64,000 bases of DNA from assembly GCA_951802425.1 (NCBI GenBank), contig OX637802.1, forward strand, positions 2,604,001 to 2,668,000. The letters run 5' to 3'. The notes beneath the pieces are model-generated. The model was given only the letters and a program-made list of their open reading frames with translations, was not told the DNA's origin and did no database searches. The stretch is from Clavaria fumosa. Its lineage: Eukaryota > Basidiomycota > Agaricomycetes > Agaricales > Clavariaceae. A program made the position numbers and the translations under genes. Of this stretch, positions 26,590 through 64,000 are shown in pieces; the first letter of the stretch is position 1, and each line of letters begins with the position of its first letter.

Positions 26590-27623
26590 TTAGGTGGAGG
26601 GGGGCAAGCCAGGCAACACCTGCAAAATTCCTTCGGGCTTGTCTAGCCCACACTCTGCTCCTACCTCTCCGTCCTCCACCGCCTTCTCCAATCTCTCCGC
26701 CTCCTTCTCCACCTCTACCTCCTTCGCCTTTTCCTTCTCCTTCTCCTTCCCCATCACCTCCACCACCATGTCCTCTGCCTCCACTTTCTCCGCCTCCGCC
26801 CTCAGAGCCTCCACTTTCCTCTTCCTCTCTGCCTCCACTACCTCTGCTGCCTCCGCCTTCTCCGCCACCTCCATCCTCCTCCCCACTTCTCCAAAATCCT
26901 GCGGAGGATCCTCCGATCCTCCACCGCGGCCTTTCACTCTGCTGCTGCCTCCTTCCTCCACTCCTCTATCGCAACCACTCCCCTCAGGACCATGCTATGC
27001 ATGGCCCACACCAAGTTCAAAACCTCCTCCTCCAGCTGCTGACCCTGCAGCACCCACATCTCTGACCTATCCTCCTCCGAGTCCGCAGACCACTTGGTCC
27101 ATGTCCCCTTTGCCTTTTTCCACTCCGGCCACTCTGCCTCTCCACACTTCTGCTTCGCCCCTGCACAGGCATTGCAGGCCGTCCCCCACCCCCCACTTGG
27201 CCACACACAGGCCATCCCCAACCTCCGGCATCACACGCACTCTGCACGATCCGCCTCCGTCTCCGGTGTCGGAGACCATTTCCTCCCTACCCCTTGCTCC
27301 CACGCCACCTCCGCCGCCTTCCGCTTCGCCTCCACCGCCTTCGCCCTCTCCAGCTCCTCCTGCCACACCTCATCCACTACCTCCTTCGCTTTCCGCTCCT
27401 CCTCCTCCCGCCTCTGTTGCTCCTCTTCCTCCCTCGCCTTTTTCTCCCTCAATGCATTGATTCCTTTTGTGAGGGTGGCGATCTCGGGGTCCTTGTCCTC
27501 CGCATGGGGTTGCGTGGGGACAGCAACAACGGGTCATGGGTGAGGGTGGGAGGGGCAACTGGGCCCGGCTCCAGGCATTGATTGTGTGTTGGACATGATG
27601 AGTTTTTTTAAAGAATTGCCCAT
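26590..27623 (-). pseudogene. Antisense accessory gene of Gypsy2, decayed
   Basis: Read on the minus strand from ATG 27623 (MGNSLKKL). One frame continues through a TGA at 27534, a Glu/Arg-rich coiled coil (KKAREEEEQQRREEEERK), and a cluster interrupted by TGA at 27231. The cluster has spacing C-X2-C-X6-C-X10-C-X2-C-X6-C (ending CNACAGAKQKC), with the stop replacing one residue between the first two Cys. The frame ends at 26934; a second, Glu/Ala/Val-rich coiled-coil frame (26961-26590) follows out of phase and is either a further exon or a frameshifted tail. Position, orientation and domain order match the intact antisense gene of Gypsy1. Confidence 0.65.
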
Positions 27624-27825
27624 GTTAGGGGCAAATGATGATGGTGATGAGTTAAGGAAGAAAAAAGCGGAGCACGCCACGCACAGTTGTTTTAACCCCC
27701 AAAAAAAAAAATCGGACTCCAATTGAAGTGCCACAAAACTCTGGTGCTAACTTGTTTTGGAATGCACATGTTCATGTGGAGTTTAGCCACAGGGTCTCAG
27801 GGGTTCGACCCTAAAAGGGGGATAC

Positions 27826-28557
27826 TGTTATGACCCCATCCAATCACATAAGCACAATCCCCACTCCAGACTCCAGACTCTGTGCCAACTCTGGCCATCT
27901 CTGATCCACCCCTCTGTAACTCCACATCCTCCACTCTGCACCTTCTTTGGACTCCGTTCTGCCGTACTTTGGACCTTTCAGACTTCATTCTAGAACCTTC
28001 TCCCTCCATTCCCTCATTCTGTTTACCATTGCGAGGATACCCTTGACCCATGGGAGTTATTTTTGTTGTTATTTCTTTGTTCCATGAAAATTGCACAGGC
28101 ACTTGTGGTGAAACTCTCCTAGTAATTTGATATGTACATTGTTTCACATTACTCCTATACTCTGTCCTTGCAGTATAAGTTCCCACCTGTATCTCCCTGC
28201 TCCTCAGTTCAAATATTAATGTCTCTTGATCCTAAATATCTCTGAGCTTTTGTCCTCATCATCCTCAACATTCTCCATATCATCTGACCAACTCTGACCA
28301 ACTCTGACAGACTCCGATCAACTTTGGAGTTTGACTTTCATTCTGATTCTCTCTTGGGTATTGTTTCTGTTTGATAAATAGGGACACATATATATGTGGT
28401 GGCACAACACATACATTGAGGCCGCAGTCCCATAAATCTCCTTCTTCTCTGTTTGCTTCTCCGTTTCTCCAATATCGGACTCCGATCGGACTCTGATAAA
28501 ACATCTCCACCCTGTTCCATTAACCCCTTTTGCTACTAACCTGATAGGACCATGACA
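27826..28557 (+). repeat. Gypsy2 3' LTR
   Basis: 732 bp, from TGTTATGACC to CATGACA, preceded by the purine tract AAAAGGGGGA. The 5-bp flanks of the whole element (GCTAG left, TATGT right) do not match, so no target duplication is preserved. Confidence 0.9.
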
Positions 28558-30244: not shown

Positions 30245-33200
30245 CTATGGGGCTGGGGCCGGGACCGCAGTCGGCTTCGCCATTGCCGCCTGCTTCTTCA
30301 AATTCATGATCTCCTTAATGACCAACGTCGTCACCTTCTTGTCGGCCGCGGCCTTCTCGTCGGCTTGTCTCTTTTCGCGTGCGGCCTCCTTCTCGGCCTT
30401 GACCTGCGCCATGCGCAAGGCCTCTACCTGCTCGTCGCGGCGGAGTTGCTTCTCCGTCACATCCTTCATCCAGCTCCGGTGCGAGCAGCACCACCGCAGG
30501 GACGTGACTGTCTTGACGCAGCAGGGGCAGTCGTACAGATCCATGGGCGGCTCGTAGCAGCCGCAGCAGCTATCGCGCGCGAGCTGAGCCTCGCTATACG
30601 CGTCGTTCGGAGGCGGAACCATGTAGATGAAATACCCCATCGTGAGCACCGTGGCGATGAGGTTGAAGGTGTGCATGCCAAAGGCGTCTTGTCGTTGTTT
30701 TCGTTATTCATCCAAAAGTATTTTTGGTGGAGATGACATGACGTACCGAGAATGCGAGGGGCTTTGGCCTCGATAAGCGTGAGCTCGTTAATGATGGGCC
30801 TCTCGCCAGAGGTCGCATTCCTGATTGCCGTATTATAAATGGCGGCTGTCCGGCTGAACCAACTTTGGGATGATTCGACTAGAATGAAGTCTGCAATGAT
30901 GTGCACATTAATAACTCAATTCCAAATTGCAAGAATCTAACGAAGAGACACTCACTCGCTGCAAACGCGATTAATGGGAACCACCAAATGTGACGTCTGA
31001 TACGGTTCCATTTCATTTGCAAGTGCGCCGATATCCAAATAATTATGCCCAGGACATACACGGTCCAGAATACGCCAAGAACAGGAGGGGGGGGTGGCTT
31101 GACAAGATTTGCGGCATCTTGTAGTTCAACAATATCACCGAATGCTTGGAAGTCTGTCCATGGAGAGAGATGTTATATTTAATCATGATGTTTTGAAATA
31201 ATAGAAGCTAACAGTATGTTTCTTGAAAAGAGTTAATACATTCCGGTTGAGATGGTGATGGTGCTTGGATGCACGAAACTGAGGTAAAGGATGGTTAGGA
31301 AATAAATAGTCTTGATGTAACAAAAGATTGAGACTCACCGAAGAAAGTGAACAGGGCATTCCAACCCTGGGACCGGTCCAGTTGTGAATGATTGCGAGGG
31401 TTCACTATTCCCATTGAAGGAACGATTCTAAGCCATGCATAGGTGCTTGGGATTGTGTGCCAAAAAATGCAGCTGAAAACGAGGATTGTGTAGAGAACAA
31501 AACTGGGGACAGAAAGAAAGGAGCCCATGTGAGAAACGGCCTTGAAGCAGCTGGGGGGGACAAAGGTAGGGGGCTGAGATTTTTCAGGAGGTTTTGTGAG
31601 ATTCTCAAGCCAAGGAATAATGCCACTGGTGTCTAAACCAGCCAGTGCGGCAGGGGCGAGTGTGGGTGCAGATGCGGATGCGGGTTGCGGGGGGGTAGGC
31701 AAAAGTCTGTTAGTTTGGGGACTGCCTTGAGGTCGCTGTGAGATCTATGAGTTAACGTTCTCTTCGGATCCAAACAAACTCTCACGCTTGCAAATGCACT
31801 TGACTGTGTAATCTGTGAGGTAACGTTTTCTTCGGATCCAAACAAACTCTCACCTGCTGTCCAGTCGGCAATGTAATCTATGAGCTAACGTTTTCTTCAG
31901 ACCTAAACAAACTCTTACCTGTCCAGTTGACAATGACTGTGTGATCTATGAGCTAACATTTTCTTCGGATCCAAACAAACTCTCACCACCTGCTGTCCAG
32001 TTGGCTATGTAATCTATGAGCTAATGTTTTCTTCAGATCCAAACAAACTCTCACCGCCTGCGATCCAGTCGGCTATGTAATCTATGAGCTAACGTTTTCT
32101 TCAGACCTAAACAAACTCTTACCTGTCCAGTTGACAATGACTGTGTGATCTATGAGCTAACGTTTTCTTCGGATCCAAACAAACTCTCACCGCCTGCGAT
32201 CCAGTCGGCTATGTAATCTATGAGCTAACGTTTTCTTCAGACCTAAACAAACTCTTACCTGTCCAGTTGACAATGACTGTGTGATCTATGAGCTAACGTT
32301 TTCTTCAGATCCAAACAAACTCTCACCACCTGCTGTCCAGTTGGCTATGTAATCTATGAGCTAATGTTTTCTTCAGATCCAAACAAACTCTCACCGCCTG
32401 CGATCCAGTCGGCTATGTAATCTATGAGCTAACGTTTCTTCAGACCTAAACAAACTCTTACCTGTCCAGCTGGTGGCTGTGTGATCTATGAGCTAATGTT
32501 TTCTTCGGATCCAAACAAACTCTTACCTGTCCATTTGATGATGACTGTGTGATCTATGAGCTAACGTTTTCTTCGGTATAAACAATGTTCTCACCCTGTT
32601 TGGCTGCGAAACCTGGGATGGCCACCACCAGTTCCATGCATATGCCAGCATGCCAGACCATGGTACAAACCATGGTACCGGTGCTTGTCCTTCCTGAGCA
32701 TCCGATGCTCGATCTTCGTCATTGCGCTGTTCCTGTGAATTATTAATAACGTTATCTTTTTCAACGGATTTGTTCTCCAGTAATTGTAGTCGTTGGTCAT
32801 GTGACAGCAATTTCTGTGAGTTATTATTAATAACGTTATCTTTTCACGGATTTATTCTCTGTCTCTGTCTCACCATGTCTTTGTCAAGTTCCTGTGAGTT
32901 ATTAATAACGTTATCTTGTTCACTGGAATGGTTCTCTGTCTCACCATAAATTCTAGTGCTCTGAAAGGTAGCAGCGTTCTCTGTGAGTTATTAATAACGT
33001 CGTCTTATTTCACGGATTTGTTCTCTCTCTCACCAGATATGGTAGCACTTGTTCAGGGCTCAGCGTTCTCTGTGAGTTATTATTAATATCATCTTTTTAC
33101 CGGATTTGTTCTCTCTCTCACCAGACGTGATAGTTCTGTGTCATATGAGCGCATCCTTCGTGGTTGACCGAGCGATGATGTCGATCGTATCTGTGTGATC

Positions 33201-36200
33201 TATGAGTTAACATTATCTTCTCAACTGGATCGGTTCTGTCTCACACTGTCGGGTCGCTGTAATCTATGAGTTAATAACGTTATCATCCCATCCAAACAAC
33301 GTTCTCACCGCGTCCAACGATGGTTCTTGCACCGTTCTCTGTGAGTTTTCTTGCACCGTTCTCTGTGAGTTATTAATAACGTTATCAATTTATTCTCTGT
33401 CTCTGTCTCACCAGATATTCCTGTGAAATATTATTAACAACGTTATCTTTTCACCAGATTTGTTCTCTCTCACCACCAAATCTAGTTGTGCGGTAAATGA
33501 CAGCGTTTCCTGTGAGTTATTAATAACGTTATCTTTCTCACGGACTTGTTCTCTGTCTCACCGAATATGCTTCTCGTTGTTCGACATTTGACAGCGTGTT
33601 CTGTGAGTTATTAATGACGTCATCTTTTCATGGATTTGTTCTCTGTCTCACCAGATGATTTAGATGACCGGCAAGTGCCTGTGAGTTATTAATAACGTTA
33701 TCTTTTCATCAGATTTGTTCTCTGTCTCACCAGTAATTCTAGTTGTGTGATCCCTGTCACTCCCAGTTCCTCCAGATATGCTTGTCGTCCGTCAGGTGAC
33801 AGCCTCATCTGTGAGTTATTATTAATAACGTTATCTTTTTCATCGGATTGGTTCTCTCTCTCACTATTTGTGATAGTCGTTCGTAAAATGTCCGATTCAC
33901 CTCACTCATTGGTGGTGGATGTATTGATGATGATCCCTGTGTGATCTATGAGTTAACGTTATCTTTTCACTGGATATGTTATCTGTCTCACCTGATCCTG
34001 TAAGTAAAAGTGATCTGTGAGTTAACATCTGTCTCACCGTCATCAATTGCTCGCTCTGTGAGTTATTATTAATAATGTTATCAATTTATTCTCTGTCTCT
34101 GTCTCACCAGATAATTGGAAAAGTCCTGTGAATTATTAATAACGTTATCTTTTCACCAGATTTGTTCTCTCTCACCATCAAATCTTGTTGTCTGTCATTT
34201 GGCAGCGTTTCCTGTGAGTTATTAATAACGTTATCTTTCTCACGGACTTGTTCTCTGTCTCACCCAATGTGCTTGTTGTTGTTCGGCAATTGACAGCACG
34301 ATCTGTGAGTTATTAATAACGTCATCTTTTCAGGGATTTGTTCTCTGTCTCACCAGATCATCTAGACAACGGGCAAGTTCCTGTGAGTTATTAATAACGT
34401 TATCTTTTCATCAGATTTGTTCTCTGTCTCACCAGTAATTCTCGTCGTGTGTCACGTGTCACTTCCACCTGTCCCACCAGATATTCAACTCGTCCGTCAG
34501 GTGGCAGCCTTCTCTGTGAGTTATTATTAATAACGTTATCTTTTTCATCGGAATGGTTCTCTCTCTCACTATTTGTGATAGGTGTTCGTAAAATGCCGTT
34601 GTCCTTGTTGGTGAAGGTGGTTCCTGTGTGATCTGTGAGTTATCTTCTCATCGGATCTGTTCTCTGTCTCACCTCCGGCGGCACCCTTGGTGAAGGTTGA
34701 TCCTGTGTGATCTGTGAGTTAACATTATCTTCTCAACTGGATCGGTTCTGTCTCACCCTGTCGGGTGGCTGTAATCTATGAGTTAATAACGTTATCATCC
34801 CATCCAAACAACATTCTCACCGTGTCTGGTTCTGGCACCCTTCTCTGTGAGTTATTAATAACGTTATCAATTTATTCTCTGTCTCTGTCTCACCAGATAT
34901 TCCTGTGAGTTATTATTAATAATGTTATCTTTTCACCAGATTTGTTCTCTCTCACCACCACATCTAGTTGTGCGGCATATGGCAGCGTTTCCTGTGAGGT
35001 ATTAATAACGTTATCTTTCTCACGGACTTGTTCTCTGTCTCACCAGATATGCTTGTCGTCGTGCGTCATTTTGCAGCGTGTTCTGTGAGTTATTAAGAAC
35101 ATCATCTTTTCATGGATTTGTTCTCTGTCTCACCAGATGATTTAGATAACGGGCAAGGTTCTGTGAGTTATTAATAACATTATCTTTTCATCAGATTTGT
35201 TCTGTCTCACCAATAATTCTCGTCCTGTGTCCTGTGTCACTCCCAGATCCTCCAGATATGCTTGTCGTCCGTCAGGTGACAGCGTTATCTGTGAGTTATT
35301 ATTAATAACATTATCTTTTTCATCGGATTGGTTCTCTCACTCACCAGACGTGATAGTCGTTCGTGAAATGTCCGATTCCCCTCACTCATTGGTATTGATG
35401 ATGATCCCTGTGTGATCTATGAGTTAACGTTATCTTTTCACTGGATATGTTATCTGTCTCACCTGATCCTGTAAGTAAAAGTGATCGGTGAGTTAACATC
35501 TGTCTCACCAGCTCAAATGGCGTGCTCTGTGAGTTATTATTAATAACGTCATCAATTTATTCTCTGTCTCTGTCTCACCAGATAATCGAGAAAGAGCTGT
35601 GAGTTATTAATAACATTATCTTTTTCACTGGATTTGTTCACTGTCTCACCCACAAATCTTGTCGTTCCCTCAGTGTCATATTTTCCTGTGAGTTATTAAT
35701 AACGTTATCTTTCTCACGGACTTGTTCTGTCTCACCATCCTATATGCTTCTCGTTGTTCGTCATTTGACAGCCCCATCTGTGAGTTATTAATAACGTCAT
35801 CTTTTCATGGATTTGTTCTCTGTCTCACCTGATCATTTAGATGACGGACAAGGTTCTGTGAATTATTAATAACGTTATCTTTTCATCAGATTTGTTCTCT
35901 GTCTCACCAGATATTCTTGTTGTCCGTCAGGTGTCACTCCCTGTCCCACCAGATATTCAATTTGTTCCCTAAGTGGCAGCCTTCTCTGTGAGTTATTATT
36001 AATAACGTTATCTTTTTCATCGGATTGGTTCTCTCTCTCACTATTTGTGATAGTCGTTCCCAAAATAACCTTGACCGGCTCATTTCACTCATTGGATCTG
36101 TTCTCCGTCTCACCTCATCGAGTGGCTGTGTGATCTGTTAATAACGTTCTCATCTGATCCAAACAACGTGAGAATTCTCACATCTGGCGGTGAACTTGGC

Positions 36201-38308
36201 GTTGGCGGTATCGGTGATGGCTGTGTGGTCTCTGAGTTAATGTTGTCTTCTCAACTGGATCGATTCTGTCTCACCCTGTCGGGTGGCTGTAATCTATGAG
36301 TTAATAACGTTATCATCCCATTGGCCTATGAATTATTAATAACGTTATCTTTTTCAACGGATTTGTTCTCTGTCTCACCAGTAATTGTAGTCGTTGCTCA
36401 ATTGGCAGCGTTATCTGTGAGTTATTAATAAAAATGTTATCAATTTATTCTCTGTCTGTCTCACCAGATCTTCGCCAACAATGGCCTGTGAATTATTAAT
36501 AACGTTATCTTTTTCACCGGATTTGTTCTCTGTCTCACCTGCAAATCTAGTCGTCTGCCCTCTGGCCGCGTTATCTGTGAGTTATTAATAACGTTATCTT
36601 TTTCACGGATTTGTTCTCTGTCTCACCAGATATCTTCGTCGTTGGTCAATTGGCAGCATGCCCTGTGAGTTATTAATGACGTCATCTTTTCATGGATTTG
36701 TTCTCTGTCTCACCAGATGATTTAGATCATGGTCAAAGTCCTGTGAGTTTTTAATAACGTTATCTTTTCATCAGATTTGTTCTCTGTCTCACCATTAATT
36801 CTAGTTGTGTGGTAGCTGGCAATCTCCCCAGATATTCAAATAGTCCGTCAGGTGACAGCGTTCTCTGTGAGTTATTATTAATAACGTTATCTTTTTCACC
36901 GGAATGGTTCTCTCTCTCACTATTTGTAATATGTGTCCGTAAAATGACCTTGTCCTTGGTAGAGGTATCGATGATGGTCCCTGTGTGATCTATGAGTTAA
37001 ACGTTATCTTTTGACTGGATATGTTCTCTGTCTCACCCGTAATTGTAGTTGCTCAATTGGCGGCAGCTGCGAGTTATTAATAACGTTATCAATTTATTCT
37101 CTGTCTCTGTCTCACCAGATCTTGGATTGGCGGTAAAGGTGGTGGCTGTGTGATCTGTGAGTCAACGTTATCTTCTCAACTGGATCGGTTCTGTCTCACA
37201 CTGGGCGGCTGTAATCTATGAGTTAATAACATTATCATCCCATCCAAACAACGTTCTCACCCTGTCCAATGGTGGTGGATCTTCGTCAAAGGCCTGTGAA
37301 TTATTAATAACGTTGTCAATTTATTCTCTGTCTCTGTCTCACCAGATCTTCGCCAACAATGGCCTGTGAATTATTAATAACGTTATCTTTTCACCAGATT
37401 TGTTCTCTGTCTCACCAGTTCGTCTATTGTGTGTGGTGACAGAGTGTCCTGTGAGTTATTGATAACGTTATCTTTTTCACGGATTTGTTCTCCGTCTCAC
37501 CAGATGTGCTTGTCGTTGTTCAGATGTCAGCGTTCTCTGTGAGTTATTAATAACGTTATCAATTTATTCTCTGTCTCTGTCTCACCAGATATTCCTGTGA
37601 GTTATTAATAACGTTATCTTTTTCATCAGATTTGTTCTCTGTCTCACCTGATCCGCCCTTCTTCGCCAAGGTTGATCCTGTGTGATCTGTGAGTTATCTT
37701 CTCATCGGATCTGTTCTCTGTCTCACCTCCGGCGGCACCCTTGATGAAGGTTGATTCTGTGTGATCTGTGAGTTATCTTCTCATCGGATCTGTTCTCTGT
37801 CTCACCACCACCGGCACCGGTGGTTCCTGTGTGGTCTGTGAGTCAACGTTATCTTCTCAACTGGATCGGTTCTGTCTCACACTGGGATTTGTTCTCTCTC
37901 TCACCAATAATTCTCGTCGTGTGTCAGGTGTCTGACTATCCAGATATTTGTTCCATTCGTCATCTGTCAGCGTTCTCTGTGAGTTATTATTAATAACGTT
38001 ATCTTTTTCACTGGATTTGTTCTCTCTCTCACCATATGTAATAGTTGTTCGTGAAGTGACGTCCTTGGTAGAGGTATCGATGATGGTCCCTGTGTGATCT
38101 ATGAGTTAAACGTTATCTTTTGACTGGATATGTTCTCTGTCTCACCTGATCCGCCCTTGTTGGTGAAGGTGGATCCTGTGTGATCTGTGAGTTATCTTCT
38201 CATCGGATCTGTTCTCTGTCTCACCACCACCGGCACTACCTCCTGCACTGTCGACTGTTGAGGTCGAGGTAACCTCTTTCCCGGCCTCAATCCGTGGGGG
38301 GCGGGTGG
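30245..38308 (-). CDS. Giant micro-exon gene with a C-terminal four-helix membrane domain
   Basis: About 79 exons encode roughly 1,300 residues. The last five exons are 31735-31339, 31278-31240 (or to 31213), 31153-30956, 30890-30747 and 30687-30245. They encode four hydrophobic helices (VPSFVLYTILVFSCIFW; VLGVFWTVYVLGIIIWI; IWWFPLIAFAANFILV; FNLIATVLTMGYFIYMV), a Cys-rich loop (CCGCYEPPMDLYDCPCC) and a charged helical tail. Upstream, in the same frame, about 74 tiny exons follow from 31786 to 38308. Every one I measured is a multiple of three, phase 0 and stop-free. They encode short charged modules such as RTLTSEQRQAHL, ALAGHLNHL and PPDR. The introns are near-identical and 40-56 nt long. 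The 5' exon (38225 to about 38308) is preceded by an in-frame TAA, and the true start is unresolved. The product is probably a membrane protein with a long modular N-terminal part; its function is unknown. Confidence 0.8.
31745..32594 (-). repeat. Proximal intron-exon array of the micro-exon gene
   Basis: Twelve exons of 15-27 nt alternate with 40-41 nt repeats. The intron core starts GTGAGAGTTTGTTTGGATC and ends GCTCATAG; a second AG nine bases on (ATCACACAG or ATTACATAG) is the likelier acceptor. In five copies (31987, 32055, 32191, 32327, 32395) using the first AG would put a TAG in frame, which the second AG removes. Modules read SLSTGQ, PTGQQV, PTGSQA, PPAGQ and SSSNGQ. The unit is 68 bp with a 136-bp higher-order period. 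Confidence 0.8.
32595..32813 (-). other. Composite exon containing an exonised intron
   Basis: The 3' part (32732-32595, 46 codons, containing PWFVPWSGMLAYAWNWWW) is preceded by an intron copy that has lost 8 bp, including its GT donor. The 45-nt remainder (32777-32733) is now read as 15 stop-free codons (ENKSVEKDNVINNSQ), joining the upstream module KLLSHDQRLQLL in frame. This shows an intron turned into coding sequence. Confidence 0.75.
32814..38224 (-). repeat. Distal intron-exon array of the micro-exon gene
   Basis: About 60 exons. Introns of 49-56 nt have donor GTGAGAC or GTGAGAG, the palindrome GTTATTAATAAC near the 3' end (branch site) and acceptor CTCACAG or CACACAG. Examples (plus coordinates, codons): 37501-37536, 12; 37586-37594, 3; 36793-36864, 24; 36539-36574, 12; 35908-35985, 26; 35463-35468, 2; 34433-34513, 27; 33412-33420, 3; 33122-33190, 23. 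Exons recur in fixed order with a block of about 700-780 bp (eight exons) and a higher-order repeat of about 1.48 kb (35908 to 34433; 35211 to 33731). Module types: xRLxPDGRxxYL...ELL; xLAxxLNHL; xTLSxxEQRxAYL; ETLxxxxQLDLV; EYL; DQ; PPDR; SxxFYExLSQI. Confidence 0.8.
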
Positions 38309-39278
38309 CTCTGTGGCGCTGGGTTATGCGGACTGGAATTCGAATGCATGACGTTTATCCGGCGACAAACCTGACATTTCTTCTATTTGCGCCAAAATGC
38401 GATGAAGTGATAGAGGACAAGCTCAAAAACGAGATGATGGTGGAGAGAATACAAGAACAACGAAGACACACTCAGGTCTGGTCAGCATCGCTCGTTTCAG
38501 TGGGAAGAAGGGGCTGTGCGTGAAACGGTGGACACCCCTCCGCGAATGCAAGGGCGGCTCCTTGTGACGAAGCGTCGTCGTCGTTTTTTCACCACTGCCT
38601 CAACCACTGATACATCACACTGCATTTCATCGAAATTTCATCATTCGCGATTGCCAACATTTCAATACACTAAGCACAAAGTGTATGTATATGATGGCAA
38701 CGCAGAAAATACTCATGTTCTGTTTGACGATGGAATGCGTCTGAAGAAATGACTCATCGTCCATGCTTGGCCCAAATCACACGCTCGTACGACTCTCGGA
38801 GGGGAGTGGAATGAGCCAACACAATAAGACGCGCGTTCACGTACGGCGGGGGCAGCAGAGGGTGAATGACCTAGAGGCTGATTACGAGGGGAAAGCAGCA
38901 CGACGCGGTGGATGACGACGACAGCGTAGACAGCGTGCGCCGGCGGTCCAGCTGCGGTCCAGCTGCGGTTGATGCTGTCGCTGCTGTTGCTGCTCTGGTG
39001 ATGGTGGTAGTGGTAGAGGTGCAGATGTGACAGTCCCTGGTTCCGGAGATGTGGGGAGCTCGTCGCGCTGGCAGCAGCGATGGATCAGGGAACGGCGGAG
39101 GCGCGCTGCCTGACGACGGCGGCGGCGACGCCGAGACGACGTTGAGCGGTGCCGGCGCGGCCTGCTGTCCCGTTTGCACGTTCGCATCTCCCTGCTGCGG
39201 TCGTGCACTGGCGGAGGAAGCGTAGGGCAGCGAGGAGGGTTGCTCGTCGGGACCGCTGGTCAGACGCCGATAGTGCAG
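38309..39278. other. Intergenic region between divergent genes
   Basis: Presumed promoters of the micro-exon gene (minus) and the Pho80-like cyclin gene (plus). Candidate minus-strand start codons at 38377 and 38349 fail to connect cleanly to the array frame. The GC-rich stretch 38900-39270 gives overlapping open frames on both strands without recognisable domains. Confidence 0.5.
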
Positions 39279-40667
39279 ATGGACTTCCGGACGTCCTCGT
39301 CTGACGAGGACGTGATCGCACCGCTCTCGGAGCCTATTCCTCCAGGGAATCTTGGTGGGTGGCGATGGTGAAGTTAGTGCACTGCTAGACGCGTATGGGC
39401 TGAGGGAGAGTGTTCGAGGCAGAGGTTACAGAGCTGCGCCACCGCACTGCTCGTCTCCACCACCAGACGAGGGCAATGGATGGATGGACAACAGCACTGA
39501 CGACCGAGTGCTGTTGCCGTTCGTCTTCACCGAAGCCCCAATGGACAGTCTCGTCCTGCTGATTGGTACGAGTCCGCCCCTCCCAGACCCTTTGCTCGTC
39601 AACCGCTGTAGCCAACTGCACATCACGCACATGCTTCTCTCTCTTTCGTTGCAGCCGACATGCTTGCCCGTCTTATGGCGCACAATGACCGCATACCGCT
39701 CTATGCGTGAGCCTCGTCGTCGTGTTACACCTGCCTTATCGTTGGCAAGCGATGTTGATTGATACCATGCAGCGAAAGCCTGACACGTTTCCACTCCCGC
39801 TCGACGCCCAACATCTCCGTTTTAGACTATCTGAGACGCATTGTCAATTACACAAAGGTCGAGGTATGCTGTTATTTTGTTGTTGTGTTTCGAGACCGAT
39901 GTCTGGGACGGGTTGCTCCCAACACTACTCCCTCTCTGCAGAAATCCGTTCTACTCCTCACCTTGCATTACATCGACCAAATATGTGCTCGGGTGCCGCT
40001 GTTCACGCTGTCGTCTTTGACCTGCCATCGATTCATCATCACCGCCATCGTAGTCTCCAGTAAAGGCCTCTGCGATACCTTCTGCAGGAACAGCCTCTAC
40101 GCCAAAGTCGGCGGGATCCCCACATCCGAGCTGAACATGCTTGAGCGAGAGTTCCTCCGCGCGATTGACTGGAGGCTCACGGTGAGCTTCCTCTCTACGG
40201 CCATGTCCGAATCCCACGTATCAAAAAAGCCGGGTGTCTGGCCCTCCGACCTGCATCGGCAGCGGCGACACACCCCATTCCATTCCATCCCATCCCATCC
40301 CCATTCTCATCCATCATTTTCCACACACACACTCCTACAGTGCACGCGCGAAGTCCTGCAAGAGTACTACGTCAATCTTGTGCGCACTCACAGCACAGGG
40401 CGCTTCGCGATCGTCGGTGTCGGCACAGGCGTAGAGCTCGCCACCCCTACCACCACCATCTCATCGGGTATCTCAACCTCATCCGACAGCGACGTTGACC
40501 TCAGCGGCAGCAGCACCGGCGCCAGCGTGCCTTCCAGCCCGACATCCCCACGGACCCCGTCCGCCATCTTCGTCGACGTCGCTTTCCCCGACAGTGCGAC
40601 ACGCCCTCGTCCGACCATAGAGCAGAATATTGCGTTCGCCGAGCTCCAGCAGTCATGGGAACGATGA
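39279..40667 (+). CDS. Pho80-like cyclin
   Basis: Six exons: 39279-39354, 39425-39565, 39655-39706, 39773-39863, 39942-40181 and 40341-40667, 308 aa. The cyclin box of the PHO80/Pcl family spans about residues 85-225: ADMLARLMAHNDRI, TPNISVLDYLRRIV, LLLTLHYIDQICA, RFIITAIVVSSKGLCDTF, YAKVGGIPTSELNMLEREFL and DWRLTCTREVLQEYY. The N-terminus is acidic (DFRTSSSDEDV). The C-terminus is Ser/Thr/Pro-rich, as in regulatory tails. Such cyclins partner Pho85-type kinases in phosphate and nutrient signalling and polarity; the specific role cannot be told from sequence. The second intron acceptor (CAGAG before GTTACAG) was chosen because it alone keeps the frame. ATG 39279 is the first in frame. Confidence 0.9.
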
Positions 40668-41351: not shown

Positions 41352-41574
41352 GTAGGACATATAGATGAGCCCTGAAAGAGGCCATATACAATATTTGCAT
41401 GACCCTCACTCAGTGTACTAGCAGGAGGGGGGTACCCTCTTCAATGTACATGGGAATGTTCACATCACTGGCACCCATGGGCCACATTATGTCCATACAT
41501 GAGACAATTGTGCAGGCCCTTTTAGAGTCCTGCTCCAAGGGATCCCTTTCAGGTCCCTTCCCCTTCACTGCAGT

Positions 41575-42006
41575 TTACAGTGCAGTAAGCTCTTCATTGG
41601 CACTTGCCAACTTCTCTGTCAGGGAGAGAACTCTCTCCTGTGCCACCTTAAGGTCTTTCTTGACCTTGTCCAAGCCATCATAAGCTCTTTTGAGCTTTTG
41701 CTGGTGCCCCTGGCACCAGGCACTCCCCTTCTTGCTGTCTTCATGCAAGTCTGCAAGCTTGTGCTGAAGCACCTTGAGCTCTGGCCCAAGCTTGTGCTTG
41801 GCACATCCTTAAGCATTTGCTGAAACACTTTATCTGAGTGCAAGAGCAACTCAAAGATGTGGTTAGGGCAGAGCATGGGTATACCCATGCTCTGCCCTAG
41901 ATGTGGTGACAGAACCTGATGCACTGAGTGTGCCAGGATCCATGAGTGAACATGCAATCTTGGACCCAGGGGAGGATCTCCTCCCCTTGTGATAATGATG
42001 GCTAGG
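41575..42006 (-). pseudogene. Coding remnant interrupted by the fold-back element
   Basis: A minus-strand frame (LAIIITRGGDPPLGPRLHV onward) is joined after one shift to a coiled-coil frame ending at 41575 (KKDLKVAQERVLSLTEKLAS). Across the insertion at 42007-46702 the frame continues upstream at 46703-46770 (NDHCWNGWVV), so the fold-back element landed in this coding sequence. Family unknown; possibly transposon-derived. Confidence 0.45.
41864..41899. repeat. Perfect 36-bp palindrome
   Basis: Centred on 41881/41882, with arms TAGGGCAGAGCATGGGTA and complement and no spacer. It lies in the coding remnant. Confidence 0.9.
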
Positions 42007-42164
42007 CACATAGTTCAGTCAGATATTGTAGTATATAACTACATACCGGATGCTGCATATCCCCTGTATATAATGCGGTACCGGAATCCGCCGGAGATAT
42101 CCGTATCCTTGGTATAATACAGGTCCGCCAGAGGATATCCCTCTCCAGTGTGAGACCTGTCCAG

Positions 42165-43015
42165 CGGAGGGATATTAGGATATCCCTCTCCAGTATGAGA
42201 CCCATCCAGCGGAGATATTAGGATATCCCTCTCCTGTAAGAGACCTGTCCAGTGGAGATATTAGGATATCCTTCTCCAGTATGAGACCTGTCCAGTGGAG
42301 AGATATTAGGATATCCTTCCCCTGTATGAGACCTGTCCAGCAGAGATATTAGGATATCCTTCCCCTGTACGAGACCTGTCCAGCAGAGATATTAGGATAT
42401 CCTTCCCCTGTACAAGACCTGTCCAGCAGAGATATTAGGATATCCTTCCCCTGTATGAGACCTGTCCAGCGAAGATATTAGGATATCCTTCTGCAGTATG
42501 AGACATGTCCAGCAGAGATATTAGGATATCCTTCCCCTGTATGAGACCTGTCCAGCGGAGATATTAGGATATCCTTCCCCTGTATGAGACCTGTCCAGCA
42601 GAGATATTAGGATATCCTTCCCCTGTACGAGACCTGTCCAGCGGAGATATTAGGATATCCTTTCCCTGTATGAGACCTGTCCAGCGAAGATATTAGGATA
42701 TCCTTCTGCAGTATGAGACATGTCCAGCAGAGATATTAGGATATCCTTCCCCTGTATGAGACCTGTCCAGCATAGATATTAGGATATCCTTCTCCTGTAA
42801 GAGACATGTCCAGCGGAGATATTAGGATATCCTTCCCCTGTATGAGACCTGTCCAGCGGAGATATTAGGATATCCTTCCCCTGTACGAGACCTGTCCAGC
42901 AGAGATATTAGGATATCCTTCTGCAGTATGAGACATGTCCAGCAGGGATATTAGGATATCCTTCCCCTGTATGAGACCTCTCCAGTGGAGATAGTAGGAT
43001 ATCTATCCCCTGTAC
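42165..43015. repeat. 43-bp tandem array, left arm, about 20 copies
   Basis: Unit contains AGATATTAGGATATCCTTCC and GAGACCTGTCCAGC; variants have CTGCAGTATGAG or CCCCTGTATGAG. Confidence 0.9.
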
Positions 43016-44319: not shown

Positions 44320-46540
44320 GTACAGGGGATAGATATCCTACTATCTCCACTGGAGAGGTCTCATACAGGGGAAGGATATCCTAATATCCCTGCTGGACAT
44401 GTCTCATACTGCAGAAGGATATCCTAATGTCTCTGTTGGATGGGTCTCATACAGGGGAAGGATATCCTAATATCTCCGCTGGACATGTCTCATACAGGGG
44501 AAGGATATCCTAATATCTCCACTGGACAGGTCTCATACTGCAGAAGGATATCCTAATATCTCCGCTGGACAGGTCTCATACTGCAGAAGGATATCCTAAT
44601 ATCTCCGCTGGACATGTCTCATACAGGGGAAGGATATCTTAATATCTCCACTGGAGAGGTCTCATACAGGGGAAGGATATCCTAATATCTCCGCTGGACA
44701 GGTCTCGTACAGGGGAAGGATATCCTAATATCTCCGCTGGACAGGTCTCATACAGGGGAAGGATATCCTAATATCTCCACTGGACAGGTCTCATACAGGG
44801 GAAGGATATCCTAATATCTCTGCTGGACATGTCTCATACAGGGGAAGGATATCTTAATATCTCCACTGGACAGGTCTCATACAGGGGAAGGATATCCTAA
44901 TATCTCTGCTGGACAGGTCTCATACTGCAGAAGGATATCCTAATATCTCCGCTGGACAGGTCTCATACTGCAGAAGGATATCCTAATATCTCCACTGGAC
45001 AGGTCTCATACAGGAGAAGGATATCCTAATATCTCCGCTGGACAGGTCTCATACAGGGGAAGGATATCCTAATATCTCTGCTGGACATGTCTCATACTGC
45101 AGAAGGATATCCTAATATCTTCGCTGGACAGGTCTCATACTGCAGAGGGATATCCTAATATCTCCGCTGGACAGGTCTCATACAGGGGAAGGATATCCTA
45201 ATATCTCCACTGGACAGGTCTCATACAGGGGAAGGATATCCTAATATCTCCACTGGACAGGTCTCATACAGGGGAAGGATATCCTAATATCTCCGCTGGA
45301 CATGTCTCATACAGGGGAAGGATATCTTAATATCTCCACTGGACAGGTCTCATACAGGGGAAGGATATCCTAATATCTCCGCTGGACAGGTCTCATACTG
45401 CAGAAGGATATCCTAATATCTCTGCTGGACAGGTCTCATACTGCAGAAGGATATCCTAATATCTCCGCTGGACAGGTCTCATACTGCAGAGGGATATCCT
45501 AATATCTCCGCTGGACAGGTCTCATACAGGGGAAGGATATCCTAATATCTCCACTGGACAGGTCTCATACAGGGGAAGGATATCCTAATATCTCTACTGG
45601 ACAGGTCTCATACAGGGGAAGGATATCCTAATATCTCTGCTGGACAGGTCTCATACTGCAGAAGGATATCCTAATATCTCCGCTGGACAGGTCTCATACA
45701 GGGGAAGGATATCCTAATATCTCTGCTGGACAGGTCTCATACTGCAGAAGGATATCCTAATATCTCCACTGGACAGGTCTCATACAGGAGAAGGATATCC
45801 TAATATCTCCGCTGGACATGTCTCATACTGCAGAAGGATATCCTAATATCTCTGCTGGACAGGTCTCATACTGCAGAAGGATATCCTAATATCTCCGCTG
45901 GACAGGTCTTGTACAGGGGAAGGATATCCTAATATCTCCGCTGGACAGGTCTCATACTGCAGAAGGATATCCTAATATCTATGCTGGACAGGTCTCATAC
46001 AGGGGAAGGATATCCTAATATCTCTGCTGGACATGTCTCATACTGCAGAAGGATATCCTAATATCTCCGCTGGACAGGTCTCATACTGCAGAAGGATATC
46101 CTAATATCTCTGCTGGACAGGTCTCATACAGGGGAAGGATATCCTAATATCTCCACTGGACATGTCTCATACAGGTGAAGGATATCCTAATATCTCTGCT
46201 GGACAGGTCTCATACTGCAGAAGGATATCCTAATATCTCCACTGGACAGGTCTCATACAGGAGAAGGATATCCTAATATCTCTGCTGGACAGGTCTCATA
46301 CAGGAGAAGGATATCCTAATATCTCCGCTGGACATGTCTCATACTGCAGAAGGATATCCTAATATCTCTGCTGGACAGGTCTTGTACAGGGGAAGGATAT
46401 CCTAATATCTCCACTGGACATGTCTCATACTGCAGAAGGATATCCTAATATCTCTGCTGGACAGGTCTCTTACAGGAGAGGGATATCCTAATATCTCCAC
46501 TGGATGGGTCTCATACTGGAGAGGGATATCCTAATATCCC
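44320..46540. repeat. 43-bp tandem array, right arm, about 50 copies
   Basis: The same unit in inverse orientation (GGATATCCTAATATCTCCGC). Two unit types, ACAGGGGAA and ACTGCAGAA, are interspersed. The array is about 2.6 times longer than in the left arm, so the palindrome is asymmetric through unequal expansion. Confidence 0.9.
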
Positions 46541-46869
46541 TCCGCCGGACAGGTCTCACACTGGAGAGGGATATCCTCTGGCGGACCTGTATTATACCAA
46601 GGATACGGATATCTCTGGCGGATTCTGGTACCGCGTTATATACAGGGGATATGCAGCATCTGGTACGTAGTTATATACTACAATATCCGACTGAACTATG
46701 TGGGCTAGGACAACCCAGCCATTCCAACAGTGGTCATTGGTAACAAATTCCCTGTCAATGAGGCCAGGGGCAGTGGTGGTTGCAGCAGTAGCAGTAGCAG
46801 CAGCAGTGTGGGTAGCATAGAGAGATAGGACAGGACTGCGACAAACAGGCTGACAGAACCTGAAGACCT

Positions 46870-57309: not shown

Positions 57310-58040
57310 GTATGCACAAGTCTGCACAGTGTGCATAACTTTGCATAACTTTGCATAACTTTGCATAACTTTGCATAACTTTGCACAACTTGTACAAAAA
57401 TATTGCATAACTGTGCATAACTTTGCACAACTCTGCACAACTTGTACAACAATATTGCATAACTGTGCATAACTGTGCACAACTCTGCACAACTTGTACA
57501 ACAATATTGCATAACTGTGCATAACTGTGCATAACTTTGCACAACTCTGCACAACTTGTACAACAATATTGCATAACTGTGCATAACTGTGCATAACTTT
57601 GCACAACTCTGCACAACTTGTACAACAATATTGCATAACTTTGCATAACTTTGCACAACTCCACACAAAACCATTGCATAACTTTGCATAACTTTGCATA
57701 ACTCTGCACAACTCTGCACAAAAATATTGCATAACTTTGCATAACTTTGCATAACTCTGTATAACTTTGCATAACTCTGCATAACTTTGTTGCACAACTT
57801 TGCACAACTCTGCATAACTTTGCACAACTTTGCATGGCTCTGCATGACTTTGCACAACTTTGCACAAAAATGTTGCACAACTTTGCACAACTTTGCACAA
57901 CTTTGCATAAGTGTGCATAAGTGTGCATTAGTGTGCATAAGTGTGCATAAGTGTGCATAAGTGTGCACAAGTGTGCGCAATCTTGCATAAGTTTGCACAA
58001 GTTTGCACAAGTTTGCATAAGTGCACACTTGTGTGCATAA
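57310..58040. repeat. Satellite built on TTTGCATAAC
   Basis: Roughly 70 units of about 10 bp (GCATAACTTT, GCACAACTCT, GCATAAGTGT variants), with a higher-order unit of about 65-75 bp marked by TTGTACAACAATATTGCATA. Because 10 is not a multiple of three and the units lack stops on the minus strand, all three minus frames stay open for 200-300 codons (KLCKVMQSYA-type peptides). I regard them as by-products. Confidence 0.9.
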
Positions 58041-58511: not shown

Positions 58512-61018
58512 CATCAGGAAACCTCAAAATGTCTTGACCCAGCTTGATCTGTCTTGACCTTAGTGGTCAAGACAGATCAAGAACTTTTTTGGTCAAGAAC
58601 TCCGTCTTGAAAACGCAAAACGAACCTACTTATACAAGTTAAAGTTCTTGATTCAAGAACAATCAAGTGTACAAAGTAATCAAGTGTACGAGATGTGATA
58701 AGGGGTCAAGACAATGGTTCCGCTGCTGCCGCCGCCGTCATGTGCTGCTACCGCTGCCATCGTGTGCTGATGCCGCTGCCGCCACCATTGTGCGCTGCTG
58801 CCGCTGCCGTCGTGCGCTGCTGCCATCGTGCACTGCTGCCGCCACTGCGGTCGTGCGCTGCTGCCGCCACTGTGGTTGTGCGCTGCTGCCGCCGCCGTCA
58901 AGCACTGCTACCGCTGCCATCGTGTGCTGATGCCGCCGCCGCCACCATTGTGCGCTGCTGCCGCCACCGTCGTGCACTGCTGCCGCCGCTGCGGTCATGC
59001 GCTGCTGCCGCCGCTGCGGTTGTGTGCTGCTGCTGCCGCTGCGGTCGTGCGCTGCTGCCGCTGTTGTGCGCTGCTGCTGCCGCTGCGGTCGCGCTGCCGC
59101 TGCTGGTGCCATCGCCGCTGCTGCTGGTGCCATCACCGCTGCTGTTGGTGCCACCGCTGCCGCCGCCACCGCCGTCGCTGCTAGTGCTGCCGCTACCGTC
59201 GTCATCGCTGTGCTGCCGCTGCCGCCGTCACTGCTGGTACCGCCGTTGCCATCGCTGTTGGCGCCGCCGCCGCTGCTGGTGCTGTCGCCGCCGCCGCCGC
59301 TACCGTCATCATCACTGCGCCGCTGCCGCTGCTGCTGGTGCTGGTGCTGCCGCTGCCGCCATCACTGCTGGTACTGCCGCCACCGCCGCTGCTGCTGGTG
59401 CCGTTGCCGCTGCTGCTGGTGCCACCGCCGCCGCCGCTACCGTCATTGTCACTGCGCCGCCGCCGCTGGTGCCGCCGCCACCGCCATCGCTGCTGGTGCC
59501 GTCGCCGCTGCTGCTGGTGCTGCCGCCACTGCCGCCACCGCCGTCGCTGCTAGTGCCACTGCTACCGTCGTCATCGCTGCACCGCCGCCACTGCTGCTGG
59601 TGCCGTCGCCGCTGCTGCTGGTGCCGCTGCTGTCGCCGTCACTGCTGGTACTGCCGCCGCCACCATCGCAGCTGGTGCCGCTGCCGCCGCCTTCACTGCT
59701 GGTGCTGCCTCTGCCGCTGCCACCGCCGTCGCTGCTGGTGCCGCCGCCGCCGCCACCACCATCGCTGCTGGTGCCGCTGCTACCGTCGTTGTCGCTGCTA
59801 GTGCCGCCACTACCATTGTCGCTGCTTTGCTGCTGCCGCCGCCACCGTCGTCGCTGTCCATTGCCGCTGCCGATGTCGACCGCTTCTGCTGCCACTGTCG
59901 TCGTTGCCACCTGCCGTTTCTGCATTTGGGGTCATGAGAAAGGGAGAAAAAGAGAGGGGGCGGCATCACCTGAGTTGTCGTCCATTGTTCCTGCTGCTGC
60001 TGTCCACTGCCGCTGCCACCGCCGTCCACGTCACCCGCTGCTGCCGCCGCCGTCAACGCCGTCTGCTGCTGCCGCCGTCAACGCCGTCTGCTGCTGCCGC
60101 CGTCAACGCCGTCTGCTGCTGCCGCCGTCAACGCCGTCTGCTGCTGCCGCCGTCAACGCCGTCTGCTGCTGCCGCCGTCAACGCCGTCTGCTGCTGCCGC
60201 CGTCAACGCCGTCTGCTGCTGCCGCCGCTCGTCGTCCGTTGCTGCTGCTGCCGCCGTCGTCACTGTCCATTGCCGCTGCTGCTGCTGCCACCGTCATCGT
60301 CAACAACCGCTGCTGTCGTTACCCCTGCCATTTCCTTACCTGGGGTCAGCAGAGGGAAAGACAGAGGAGGTCACCTGGGGTCGTTGCCGCCATTTTCGTT
60401 GTCACACAAAGAGAGAGAGAGAGGGAGAGGAAGAGGAGTGGGGGGGTGTTAGATTGAGGATGTGAGAGTAGTGTTGTGGGCACGACTGACAAGCGGGGTC
60501 GGACTTTGAACAAAGTTCAACATAGACCATGTGACCTTATGTCGAAATTTCTTTTGAAGTCCAATTCAGGTTTTGCTGATGTTGATGTCTTTTGTAGCTA
60601 CTATGTAAATAAGTTCATTGATCACCATGCTTTTGAGATAGCTTCTTGACATCTTTTTTACTGCTTGTTTTCTAATTAGTCTTGATCATCTTATTGGCTC
60701 TTGACTACAATTGTTTCTTATTGGTCTTGACCAACTTATTGGCTCTTGATTTCTTAGCATATCCTTGACTACAATACTCTCCAAGATAAAATACATGTGT
60801 TGATTTTCTTATTAGTCTTGACCATCTTATTAGTTCTTGACTACAATTATTGCTTGTTTTCTTATTGGTCTTGACCATCTTATTAGCTCTTGACTACTTA
60901 GCATATCCTTGACTACAACACTCTCCAAGATAAAATACATGTCTTGACTTTCTTGACTGTCTTGACCAATTTGTCAAGACAGTCAAGGTGGGTCAAGACA
61001 ATTTGAGGTTTGCTGATG
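58512..61018. mobile_element. CATCAG-family inverted-repeat element 1, 2,507 bp
   Basis: Terminal inverted repeats of about 45 bp: CATCAGGAAACCTCAAAATG on the left and CATCAGCAAACCTCAAATTG reading inward from the right. Each is followed by TCTTGAC-rich subterminal sequence. The element is flanked by TTT. The interior is a CTG/CCG microsatellite and TCTTGACCA-type repeats. No transposase. A 3-bp duplication fits CACTA-like or Harbinger-type mobilisation. Confidence 0.8.
58720..60340. repeat. CTG/CCG trinucleotide array with a 25-bp sub-array
   Basis: Imperfect GCTGCTGCCGCCG repeats keep all frames open on both strands (Ala, Pro, Leu, Arg or Cys runs). Within it, 60061-60235 holds about seven copies of a 25-bp unit starting GTCTGCTGCTGCCGCC. 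I do not call genes here. Confidence 0.9.
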
Positions 61019-63016: not shown

Positions 63017-64000
63017 CATCAGCAAACCAGGGGTGATGCTGCAGTAGACTGTGTAGATCTACATAGACCCCATAGAACCCATAGAACCCATAGACAACTT
63101 CCTGGTCTATGTAGAACTACATAGATACAGGCCTTTCTATGTAGAACTATGTAGAACTATGTAGATGGTGCTTCCAGCCTGCCACCACCACCCCTCCCTT
63201 CCTTTGCACACCAGCTGCTGCGAATCAATGGCCCAGGTCCCCGTCGTCGGTCTGTGACCGCAGTGGGGGGCCTGGGCCATTGTTGCTGCTGCTGTTGCTG
63301 CTGCCGCCGCCCGCTGCCGCCGCCCACCGCTGTTGCTGCTGCCGCCACCGCCTCCGCCCGCCGCTGTTGCTGCCGCTGCCACCGCCCACCGCTGTTGCTG
63401 CCGCCGCCGCTGCCCGCCACTGTTGCTGCCGCCGCCGCCGCCCGCCGCTGTTGCTGCCGCCGCCGCCACCCGCCGCTGTTGCTGCCGCTGCCGCCCGCCA
63501 CTGTTGCTGCCGCCGCCGCCGCCCGCCACTGTTGCTGCTGCCGCCGCCGCCCGCCGCTGTTGCTGCTGCTGCCGCCGCCACTGCCCGCCGCTGTTGCTGC
63601 CGCTGCCGCCCGCCACTGTTGCTGCCACCGCCGCTGCCCGCCGCTGTTGCTGCCGCTGCCGCCCGCCACTGTTGCTGCCACCGCCGCTGCCCGCCGCTGT
63701 TGCTGCCGCTGCCACCCACCGCTGTTGCTGCCACTGCCGCCCACCACTGTTGCTGCCGCTGCCGCCCGCCGCTGTTGCTGCTGCTGCCGCCCACCGCTGT
63801 TGCTGCCGCCGCCGCCGCCGTCGCCCGCCACTGTTGCTGCCACCGCCGCCGCCCACCGCTGTTGTTGCTGCTGCCGCCGCCGCCGCCGCCGCCTGCCGCT
63901 GTTGCTGCCGCCGCCGCCGCCGCCCGTTGCTGTTGTTGCTGCTGCTGCCGCCGCCCGCCGCCCGCCGCTGTTGCTGCTGCCACCACCGCCCGCCACTGTT
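63017..64000. mobile_element. CATCAG-family element 3, one end seen, runs off the window
   Basis: Starts CATCAGCAAACC, then a subterminal region dominated by CTACATAGA and CCATAGAAC words (63050-63170), then a GCCGCTGTTGCTGCCGCC array to the window end. Confidence 0.5.
63280..64000. repeat. CTG/CCG trinucleotide array at the window edge
   Basis: Units of 27-39 bp such as GCCCGCCGCTGTTGCTGCCG, open on the minus strand in several frames (Gln, Ala, Gly-rich). No gene called. Confidence 0.9.

What the first reader, a model, noticed from the sequence alone, without database searches (positions are those of the whole stretch)
30245..38308. A minisatellite-like array is the body of a gene with about 79 exons, nearly all symmetric micro-exons
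On the minus strand I parsed about 74 consecutive exon units between 31.8 and 38.3 kb. Each is a multiple of three, has no stop and is bounded by GTGAG donors and CTCACAG or CACACAG acceptors, all phase 0. The last unit runs in frame into the exon encoding the membrane domain (31735-31339). A plain satellite would not keep frame across 60 or more units of different length (6 to 219 nt). Because every exon is symmetric, skipping any combination leaves the frame intact, so one locus could make a very large set of variants. The closest analogy I know is the micro-exon genes of schistosomes; I know of no described fungal equivalent.
Basis: partly seen in the sequence, partly recalled or inferred. 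Interest (0 to 1): 0.95.

Follow-up and report, generated by a model that had tools for sequence, protein, structure and literature searches.

The report
Mushroom gene with 78 tiny exons
What looks like junk repeat DNA in a mushroom-forming fungus reads as the coding body of a membrane-protein gene cut into more than 70 tiny exons, present in three versions whose pieces are shuffled and change fast, as in proteins that must keep changing what they recognise.

Summary
On the minus strand an open gene model runs from ATG (38377) to stop (30245): 78 exons, 1307 codons, no internal stop. All 72 array exons are multiples of three, phase 0. A parser blind to frame gives 69 of 72, against 31-34% in shuffled DNA and 7 of 32 on the other strand.

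The genome (48.8 Mb, Agaricomycete by markers) holds two more copies, with 83 and 77 exons, both open from ATG to stop, with rearranged arrays.

New evidence that the array is translated: duplicated exons differ at codon positions 1, 2, 3 in the ratio 59:56:30. dN/dS is 3.15 (bootstrap 2.13-4.94) in the predicted frame, 0.67 and 0.69 in shifted frames. The membrane exons are under purifying selection (0.40-0.46).

Its splice-variant idea is untested here: no transcripts were available. What the DNA shows is turnover of modules by duplication and apparent exchange between copies, plus diversifying selection. Nine paper searches listed no fungal gene like it.

The parts
38371..38377 (-). Exon 1: 7 coding nt with the proposed start codon; followed by a 60-nt intron
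   Evidence: Open through to the stop in all three copies; region 95.7% identical between copies A and C. Start site itself not proven by transcripts.
38225..38310 (-). Exon 2 (86 nt); with exon 1 sets phase 0
32595..38175 (-). Array exons 3-63 (61 micro-exons): mainly leucine-rich modules such as NTLSNDEQREAYL plus GSSS/proline linkers
   Evidence: diversifying selection
31786..32544 (-). Array exons 64-74 (11 micro-exons): PTGSQA / SLSTGQ linker modules, a separate intron class, 204-bp higher-order repeat
31804..31918 (-). 115-nt intron formed because one acceptor (near 31870) is mutated; one 15-nt unit dropped without frame change
31339..31735 (-). Exon 75: start of the conserved membrane part
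   Evidence: purifying selection
30956..31153 (-). Exon 76: hydrophobic segment
30747..30890 (-). Exon 77
30245..30687 (-). Exon 78: last hydrophobic stretch, cysteine cluster, charged tail, stop; its acceptor (AAG) is unusual

Best explanation
A three-member fungal gene family encodes membrane-anchored repeat proteins of 1248-1365 aa. The N-terminal 881-1005 residues come mostly from 71-77 tiny, symmetric, phase-0 exons. SHOWN by sequence: open frames from ATG to stop in all three copies; frame kept exon by exon; array exons under diversifying selection; membrane exons under purifying selection; arrays rearranged between copies; recent tandem duplications in the arrays; a near-identical 5' tract between two copies. 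INFERRED: the exons are spliced together, mostly constitutively. Because all array introns are phase 0 and alike within a few classes, an unequal crossover or conversion between introns gives an in-frame product. The introns thus act as frame-safe exchange tracts and the repeat domain diversifies at the DNA level. WEAKER inference: the variable domain is cytosolic, folds as short-helix repeats and recognises a fast-changing partner (non-self, defence or parasite ligand; about 0.35).
For: Frame-blind parse against shuffles and reverse strand. All three models open, array exons 72 of 72, 77 of 77, 71 of 71 in threes. dN/dS 3.15 in frame, 0.67/0.69 out of frame; codon positions 59:56:30; 0 of 500 neutral placements as low in silent changes. 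Codon models favour omega above 1 in three exon classes. Membrane part dN/dS 0.40-0.46. In pairs 75-90% identical, exon gaps in threes 12 of 12, intron gaps 1 of 17. Shared 5' tract between A and B with 0-1% mismatch, seven 200-bp bins in a row at zero, against 1.5-4.3% upstream. Keeping an intron would shift the frame or add a stop in 73 of 73, 78 of 78 and 69 of 72 cases.
Against: No transcript, protein, strain or species data. All selection tests compare paralogous exons that may exchange sequence, so intervals are optimistic. Over all 53 gapped pairs only 21 of 37 exon gaps are in threes (poor alignments below 75% identity). The helix idea rests on similarity below cut-offs, and an amphipathicity test was negative. 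One donor in copy B is weak (GTCAGA) and one acceptor in the window copy is lost. Recombination breakpoints were not mapped to introns; the near-identical tract could also be a later duplication or drift of rate. The recognition role is analogy only.
Confidence: 0.65

Rival explanations
1. Splice-variant generator: the array is spliced combinatorially, and exon skipping gives many isoforms from each locus, as the first reader suggests and as in schistosome micro-exon genes.
For: All array exons are symmetric. Some introns have a second in-phase YAG 3-18 nt upstream: 25 of 73, 29 of 78 and 35 of 72. Alternative splicing of central exons is reported for schistosome MEGs (passages of PMC10526429).
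Against: No transcript evidence. Splice sites are strong and uniform, which suits constitutive splicing (inference). Symmetry is also expected if only frame-safe duplication is needed.
Confidence: 0.2
2. Non-coding minisatellite in the 5' flank; transcription starts near 31.7 kb and the open frame is a by-product of copying one symmetric unit.
For: The array is repetitive and locally tandem. No transcript was available.
Against: Frame-specific excess of amino-acid-changing differences; exon gaps in threes while intron gaps are not, in well-aligned pairs; no stop in frame 0 of the joined array against 61 and 42 in the other frames of the window copy; conserved ATG region and open frame in three copies.
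Confidence: 0.05
3. Introner-like elements: mobile introns inserted many times into a formerly continuous repeat gene.
For: Introns are near-identical within classes: 220 introns fall in 24 classes at 88% identity, one with 91 members. Fungi have introner-like elements (start of abstract of PMC4457414).
Against: All 105 reported matches of an intron-exon-intron probe lie in the three loci (the tool calls such counts lower bounds). Intron class follows exon type, so exon and intron seem to have been copied together.
Confidence: 0.04
4. Relaxed selection on a decaying gene family: arrays drift because the N-terminal part has no function.
For: Arrays differ greatly between copies; one splice site is lost and one weakened.
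Against: Drift gives dN/dS near 1, not about 3, and would not keep three frames open over 71-77 exons. The membrane part is under purifying selection.
Confidence: 0.06

Closest known systems
Schistosoma mansoni micro-exon genes (MEG); passages of PMC10526429
   Same: Many very short exons, mostly multiples of three; raised dN/dS reported; repeated exons
   Different: 10-20 short exons and introns of 0.1-5 kb there; 72 array exons and mostly 49-60-nt introns here. MEGs are secreted with a signal peptide; none is seen here. No sequence relation tested.
Aphid bicycle genes and the megacycle gene; passages of PMC9168663
   Same: Many small internal exons of one phase; strong positive selection reported; megacycle has more than 100 microexons and about 2000 aa
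   Different: Phase 2 there, phase 0 here; those are putative secreted effectors, this one is a membrane protein. Cysteine motif absent from the repeat part.
Podospora anserina HNWD (het-d, het-e, het-r) genes; abstract of PMC2873952
   Same: Fungal paralogues with repeat arrays that are highly polymorphic and undergo concerted evolution; recombination within and between members
   Different: WD repeats in STAND proteins there; no Pfam domain above cut-off here. That their repeats are not split by introns is recalled, not checked.
Tremella mesenterica metallothionein gene; passages of PMC4755600
   Same: Repeat protein in a fungus with ten small exons (63-105 bp)
   Different: Ten exons against 78; cysteine-rich metal binder
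MgtE intracellular N domain (PF03448)
   Same: Leucine-spaced short repeats; weak profile similarity: 3 of 10 super-repeats match at E up to 1, best 7.3e-4; best solved-structure hit E 0.019
   Different: 16.4 bits against a cut-off of 25.9 for the segment where it was printed; in a single-sequence search a lectin chain ranked above it. May be analogy.

Membership tests
Schistosome micro-exon genes | Series of short symmetric exons | tested here: met
   72 of 72, 77 of 77, 71 of 71 array exons in threes
Schistosome micro-exon genes | Long introns, 0.1-5 kb | tested here: not met
   Array introns 40-66 nt in the three copies except one of 115
Schistosome micro-exon genes | N-terminal signal peptide, secreted | tested here: not met
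   No hydrophobic segment at the N-terminus in a hydropathy scan of the three models
Schistosome micro-exon genes | Alternative splicing of central exons | not testable with these tools
   No transcripts held
Aphid bicycle genes | Nearly all internal exons phase 2 | tested here: not met
   Phase 0 throughout the array
Aphid bicycle genes | Positive selection on the protein | tested here: met
   dN/dS 3.15, 2.13-4.94, between duplicated exons rather than species
Fungal HNWD / STAND repeat receptors | WD repeats or NTPase domain | tested here: not met
   No such Pfam match in copy A; copies B and C tested only by segments
Fungal HNWD / STAND repeat receptors | Repeat arrays that rearrange within and between paralogues | tested here: met
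   Module order differs between copies; recent duplications; near-identical A-B tract; one genome only
MgtE_N domain (PF03448) | Score above Pfam's curated cut-off | tested here: not met
   16.4 bits against 25.9; cut-offs not printed for the three matches
Introner-like elements | The same intron in unrelated genes | tested here: not met
   All 105 reported matches in the three loci (lower bound by the tool's own note)

The most novel reading that the evidence does not exclude
A fungal recognition gene family that uses dozens of phase-0 introns as interchangeable, frame-safe exchange tracts. Modules of about one helix can be gained, lost, reordered and swapped between paralogues in any combination without breaking the frame, while diversifying selection rewrites the modules: combinatorial diversification at the DNA level, possibly with splice variants on top.
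Probability: 0.35. Interest if true: 0.95.

Novelty: new variant of a known kind. Interest (0 to 1): 0.87.

Why it matters
Genes made of micro-exons are described in schistosomes and aphids, where they make fast-evolving secreted or effector proteins (passages). A 2024 paper states that functional microexons had not been described in filamentous fungi before its single example (abstract and passages of PMC11121469). A fungal gene with more than 70 of them, in three copies, would look like an independent origin of this architecture (inference). It would be a clean case for asking why the architecture keeps appearing in proteins under diversifying selection. Three features make that testable: exons evolve faster than their own introns, array introns are phase 0 throughout, and paralogues differ in module order. 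Standard annotation may miss or truncate such genes, so more may lie among mushroom 'minisatellites' (inference).

Tried and rejected
Homology outside the genome: the membrane part and the super-repeat alignment gave no hit at E 0.001 in the large protein collection. How many fungal proteins that collection holds is not known to me, so this says little. Pfam gave nothing at E up to 1 for the membrane part and one weak match, DUF6272 at E 0.5, for the repeat part of copy A.

Amphipathic helices in 48 distinct 11-14-residue exons: the moment at 100 degrees was slightly below shuffles (z -2.1). The helical idea rests on weak MgtE_N similarity alone.

A fourth locus found through the upstream region (C9:2746.6-2748.6 kb) is a diverged copy of the neighbouring cyclin region; no array or membrane part was found in the 9.9 kb fetched there.

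Other arrays of the same splice pattern in the genome: 207 matches to GTGAG-CACAG-GTGAG against 37 for the reversed control. The printed list is cut after contig 6. In it the clusters are the contig-4 copy and a short satellite at C6:989-1001 kb. A second pattern did not complete (below), so other micro-exon genes with other introns were not excluded.

Parser work: (looser rules) gave several wrong exons and was dropped. One search failed; searches stopped with an error after printing, and only what they had printed was used (repeats the failed part). In copy C mis-split exons at two places were corrected by hand on coordinates, no base changed. In one search exons of the 36-nt class were dropped by third residue or first letters (29 left) and of the 27-nt class by last residue (9 left). 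The 39-nt class (12) holds one probably unrelated exon. The 78-nt class (4, one unrelated) is not used. The omega = 1 models were fitted on the trees of the free models. The pairs leave out exons under 24 nt, unequal lengths, identical pairs, identity under 70% and copy B's exons up to 25. One search leaves out exons under 24 nt, identity under 55%, flanking introns under 75% identity and copy B's exons up to 25.

Structure prediction was not run: the spliced protein is not a letter-for-letter translation of contiguous DNA, which that tool requires.
Full report
WHAT IS THERE. On the minus strand of the window an open gene model runs from an ATG at 38377 to a stop ending at 30245. It has 78 coding exons and 1307 codons, with no internal stop. 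A 7-nt and an 86-nt exon together set the phase to 0. Then come 72 array exons (38175-31786) of 6 to 219 nt. Four longer exons follow, with hydrophobic segments (two pass a simple scan in the window copy, three in copy B, two in copy C), a cysteine cluster and a charged tail. The array has 2649 nt of exon and 3840 nt of intron. Introns up to the membrane exons are 49-60 nt, apart from two of 40 and one of 115 where an acceptor is mutated. Array donors are GTGAGA in 67 of 73, acceptors end CACAG in 61 of 73, and a branch-point-like motif is present in 72 of 73.

IS IT MORE THAN CHANCE. The first splice parser knew nothing of frame. It gave 66 of 69 internal exons as multiples of three in the window copy, and 73 of 75 and 69 of 73 in the two other copies. 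Frame 0 was open in 67 of 69, 72 of 75 and 68 of 70 exons of 9 nt or more, against 37-54 in the other frames. A tuned parser, with splice rules added after inspection, gave 69 of 72, 73 of 77 and 68 of 72. On 30 dinucleotide shuffles of each array it gave 140 of 452, 165 of 479 and 179 of 536; on the opposite strand 7 of 32, 6 of 24 and 8 of 21. The frame-aware models give 72 of 72, 77 of 77 and 71 of 71. In the window copy only 11 of 73 array introns are multiples of three.

THE FAMILY. The window lies in a 48.76-Mb, 17-contig genome. It has three hydrophobin (PF01185) and seven DUF6535 (PF20153) matches; neither family rings in the 14 control genomes. That these point to Agaricomycetes is recalled. 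The membrane exon occurs three times: in the window (contig 9), on the same contig in opposite orientation with its start codon about 212 kb from the window copy's (96%), and on contig 4 (92%). A probe from the array gave 105 matches, all inside these three loci. Copy B (L024) has 83 exons and 1248 aa. Copy C (L025) has 77 exons and 1365 aa after hand correction of mis-split exons at two places. Both are open from ATG to stop. The ATG region and the membrane exons are about 95% identical between A and C, while the arrays between them match only in patches, at 76-95% in the best rows listed. A and B share their first 23 array exons almost exactly; after that the module order differs until the second sub-array and the membrane exons.

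IS THE ARRAY TRANSLATED? Transcripts were not available, so I asked whether array exons evolve as coding sequence. Duplicated exons were paired so that each was used once. In 30 pairs of equal length and at least 70% identity, differences at codon positions 1, 2 and 3 are 59, 56 and 30. dN is 0.173, dS 0.055, ratio 3.15 (bootstrap 2.13-4.94). In frames shifted by one or two bases the ratio is 0.67 and 0.69. Twenty random pairings give 2.38-4.06. Placing the same base changes at random, with stops avoided, gives 37.7 +- 4.4 synonymous differences; 15.5 were observed, and none of 500 trials was as low. With gaps allowed, 53 pairs give dN 0.219, dS 0.092 and a downstream-intron distance of 0.048. 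Those pairs were required to have similar introns, which lowers the intron figure. In the 22 of these pairs at 75-90% identity, exon gaps are multiples of three in 12 of 12 and intron gaps in 1 of 17. Over all 53 pairs it is 21 of 37 and 6 of 31; the 16 exon gaps not in threes are all in pairs below 75% identity, where alignment is unreliable. Codon models print omega of about 7 (29 exons), about 4 (12 exons) and the upper bound of 50 (9 exons); log-likelihoods exceed those with omega = 1 by 21.7, 8.0 and 10.0 (rows dropped beforehand are listed in Tried and rejected). Between A and B the 23 shared exons carry 7 amino-acid-changing and no silent differences, and their introns 5 in 1204 sites. 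The membrane part behaves oppositely: dN/dS 0.46, 0.40 and 0.42. A non-coding repeat would not be expected to give this.

HOW IT IS BUILT. The 220 array introns fall into 24 classes at 88% identity, one of which holds 91. Class broadly follows module type: one class joins the leucine-rich modules, another the PTG/proline linkers, a third mostly precedes the GSSS-type linker. Exon and intron were therefore probably copied together. Locally the repeat period is 79-91 bp. Higher-order units of 204 bp (window) and 328 bp (copy B exons 51-60) are tandem duplications. Between the two contig-9 copies, mismatch is 0-1% per 200 bp from about 39.2 to 37.0 kb, with seven bins in a row at zero. Just upstream it is 1.5-4.3%, and in the membrane exons 0.5-5%. 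That is what recent conversion between the inverted copies would leave, though a more complex history is not excluded. Retaining an intron would shift the frame or add a stop in 73 of 73, 78 of 78 and 69 of 72 cases, whereas losing any array exon keeps the frame. The window shows this: one acceptor near 31870 is lost and the frame survives. By my reading former intron sequence has become exon in frame in 32813-32595 and 37976-37881.

HOW IT MOST LIKELY WORKS. I think the exons are spliced constitutively for the most part, because the sites are strong and the introns short (inference). The gene then diversifies by exchange at the DNA level: all array introns are phase 0, so an unequal crossover between any two yields an open frame. 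Selection then favours changed residues. The repeat part has no N-terminal hydrophobic segment and almost no cysteine (1, 1 and 0 in 946, 881 and 1005 residues) and precedes the hydrophobic segments, so it is probably cytosolic (inference). Its modules weakly resemble the MgtE N domain, a superhelix of short helices by recall (below the cut-off where one was printed). A simple amphipathicity test was negative. A recognition role, for example in allorecognition or defence, is by analogy with fungal HNWD genes, whose arrays rearrange within and between paralogues (abstract of PMC2873952). I put that role at about 0.35.

WHAT IS KNOWN. Schistosome micro-exon genes have 10-20 short exons and long introns and encode secreted proteins (passages of PMC10526429). 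Aphid bicycle genes average about 17 exons, nearly all internal ones phase 2, and one megacycle gene has more than 100 microexons (passages of PMC9168663). In basidiomycetes the nearest case I saw is a metallothionein gene with ten 63-105-bp exons (passages of PMC4755600; the paper's abstract calls the species an ascomycete, Tremella as a basidiomycete is recalled). Nine paper searches, not all aimed at fungi, listed no fungal gene of this kind. They cover only openly licensed PubMed Central papers, and most hits were seen as listings only. On the features tested it is not a member of these families; it works like parts of several.

LIMITS. No RNA, no protein, no second strain and no second species. 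The 5' end rests on frame and conservation. The selection tests use paralogous exons that may exchange sequence, so confidence limits are optimistic; their direction and frame-dependence are not easily produced by exchange (inference). One search for other micro-exon arrays in this genome did not complete.

Noticed in passing
about 39950-40190, plus strand: Part of a divergently oriented cyclin gene (PF08613, E 2.7e-21). The region upstream of the array gene is duplicated with it: window 38380-39985 matches at 97% and 90% beside copies B and C.
   Followed up: partly
G000:C9:2746608-2748595 (L026): A diverged fourth copy of the region upstream of the array gene, with no array or membrane part found in the 9.9 kb fetched.
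   Followed up: partly
42132-43014 and 44321-46577: Two arrays of a 43-bp unit (20 and 52 copies), apparently the same unit in opposite orientation.
   Followed up: no
27002-28557: High-copy element: dozens of copies at about 77-92% across the genome; only 40 of 1366 candidates were scored.
   Followed up: no
41425-41861: Another dispersed repeat, about 36 matches at 74-78% in a capped list.
   Followed up: no
57332-58020; 58722-60315; 61974-63977: A 10-bp TGCATAACTT array and long GCC/GCT-rich arrays.
   Followed up: no
L025 (copy C), end of exon 75's counterpart, near 8100: First intron of the membrane part appears to start GC instead of GT (CTTCAGCGAGT), where copies A and B have GT.
   Followed up: no
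G000:C6:989126-1001006: A separate short satellite whose units also match the GTGAG...CACAG...GTGAG pattern; not examined for coding.
   Followed up: no
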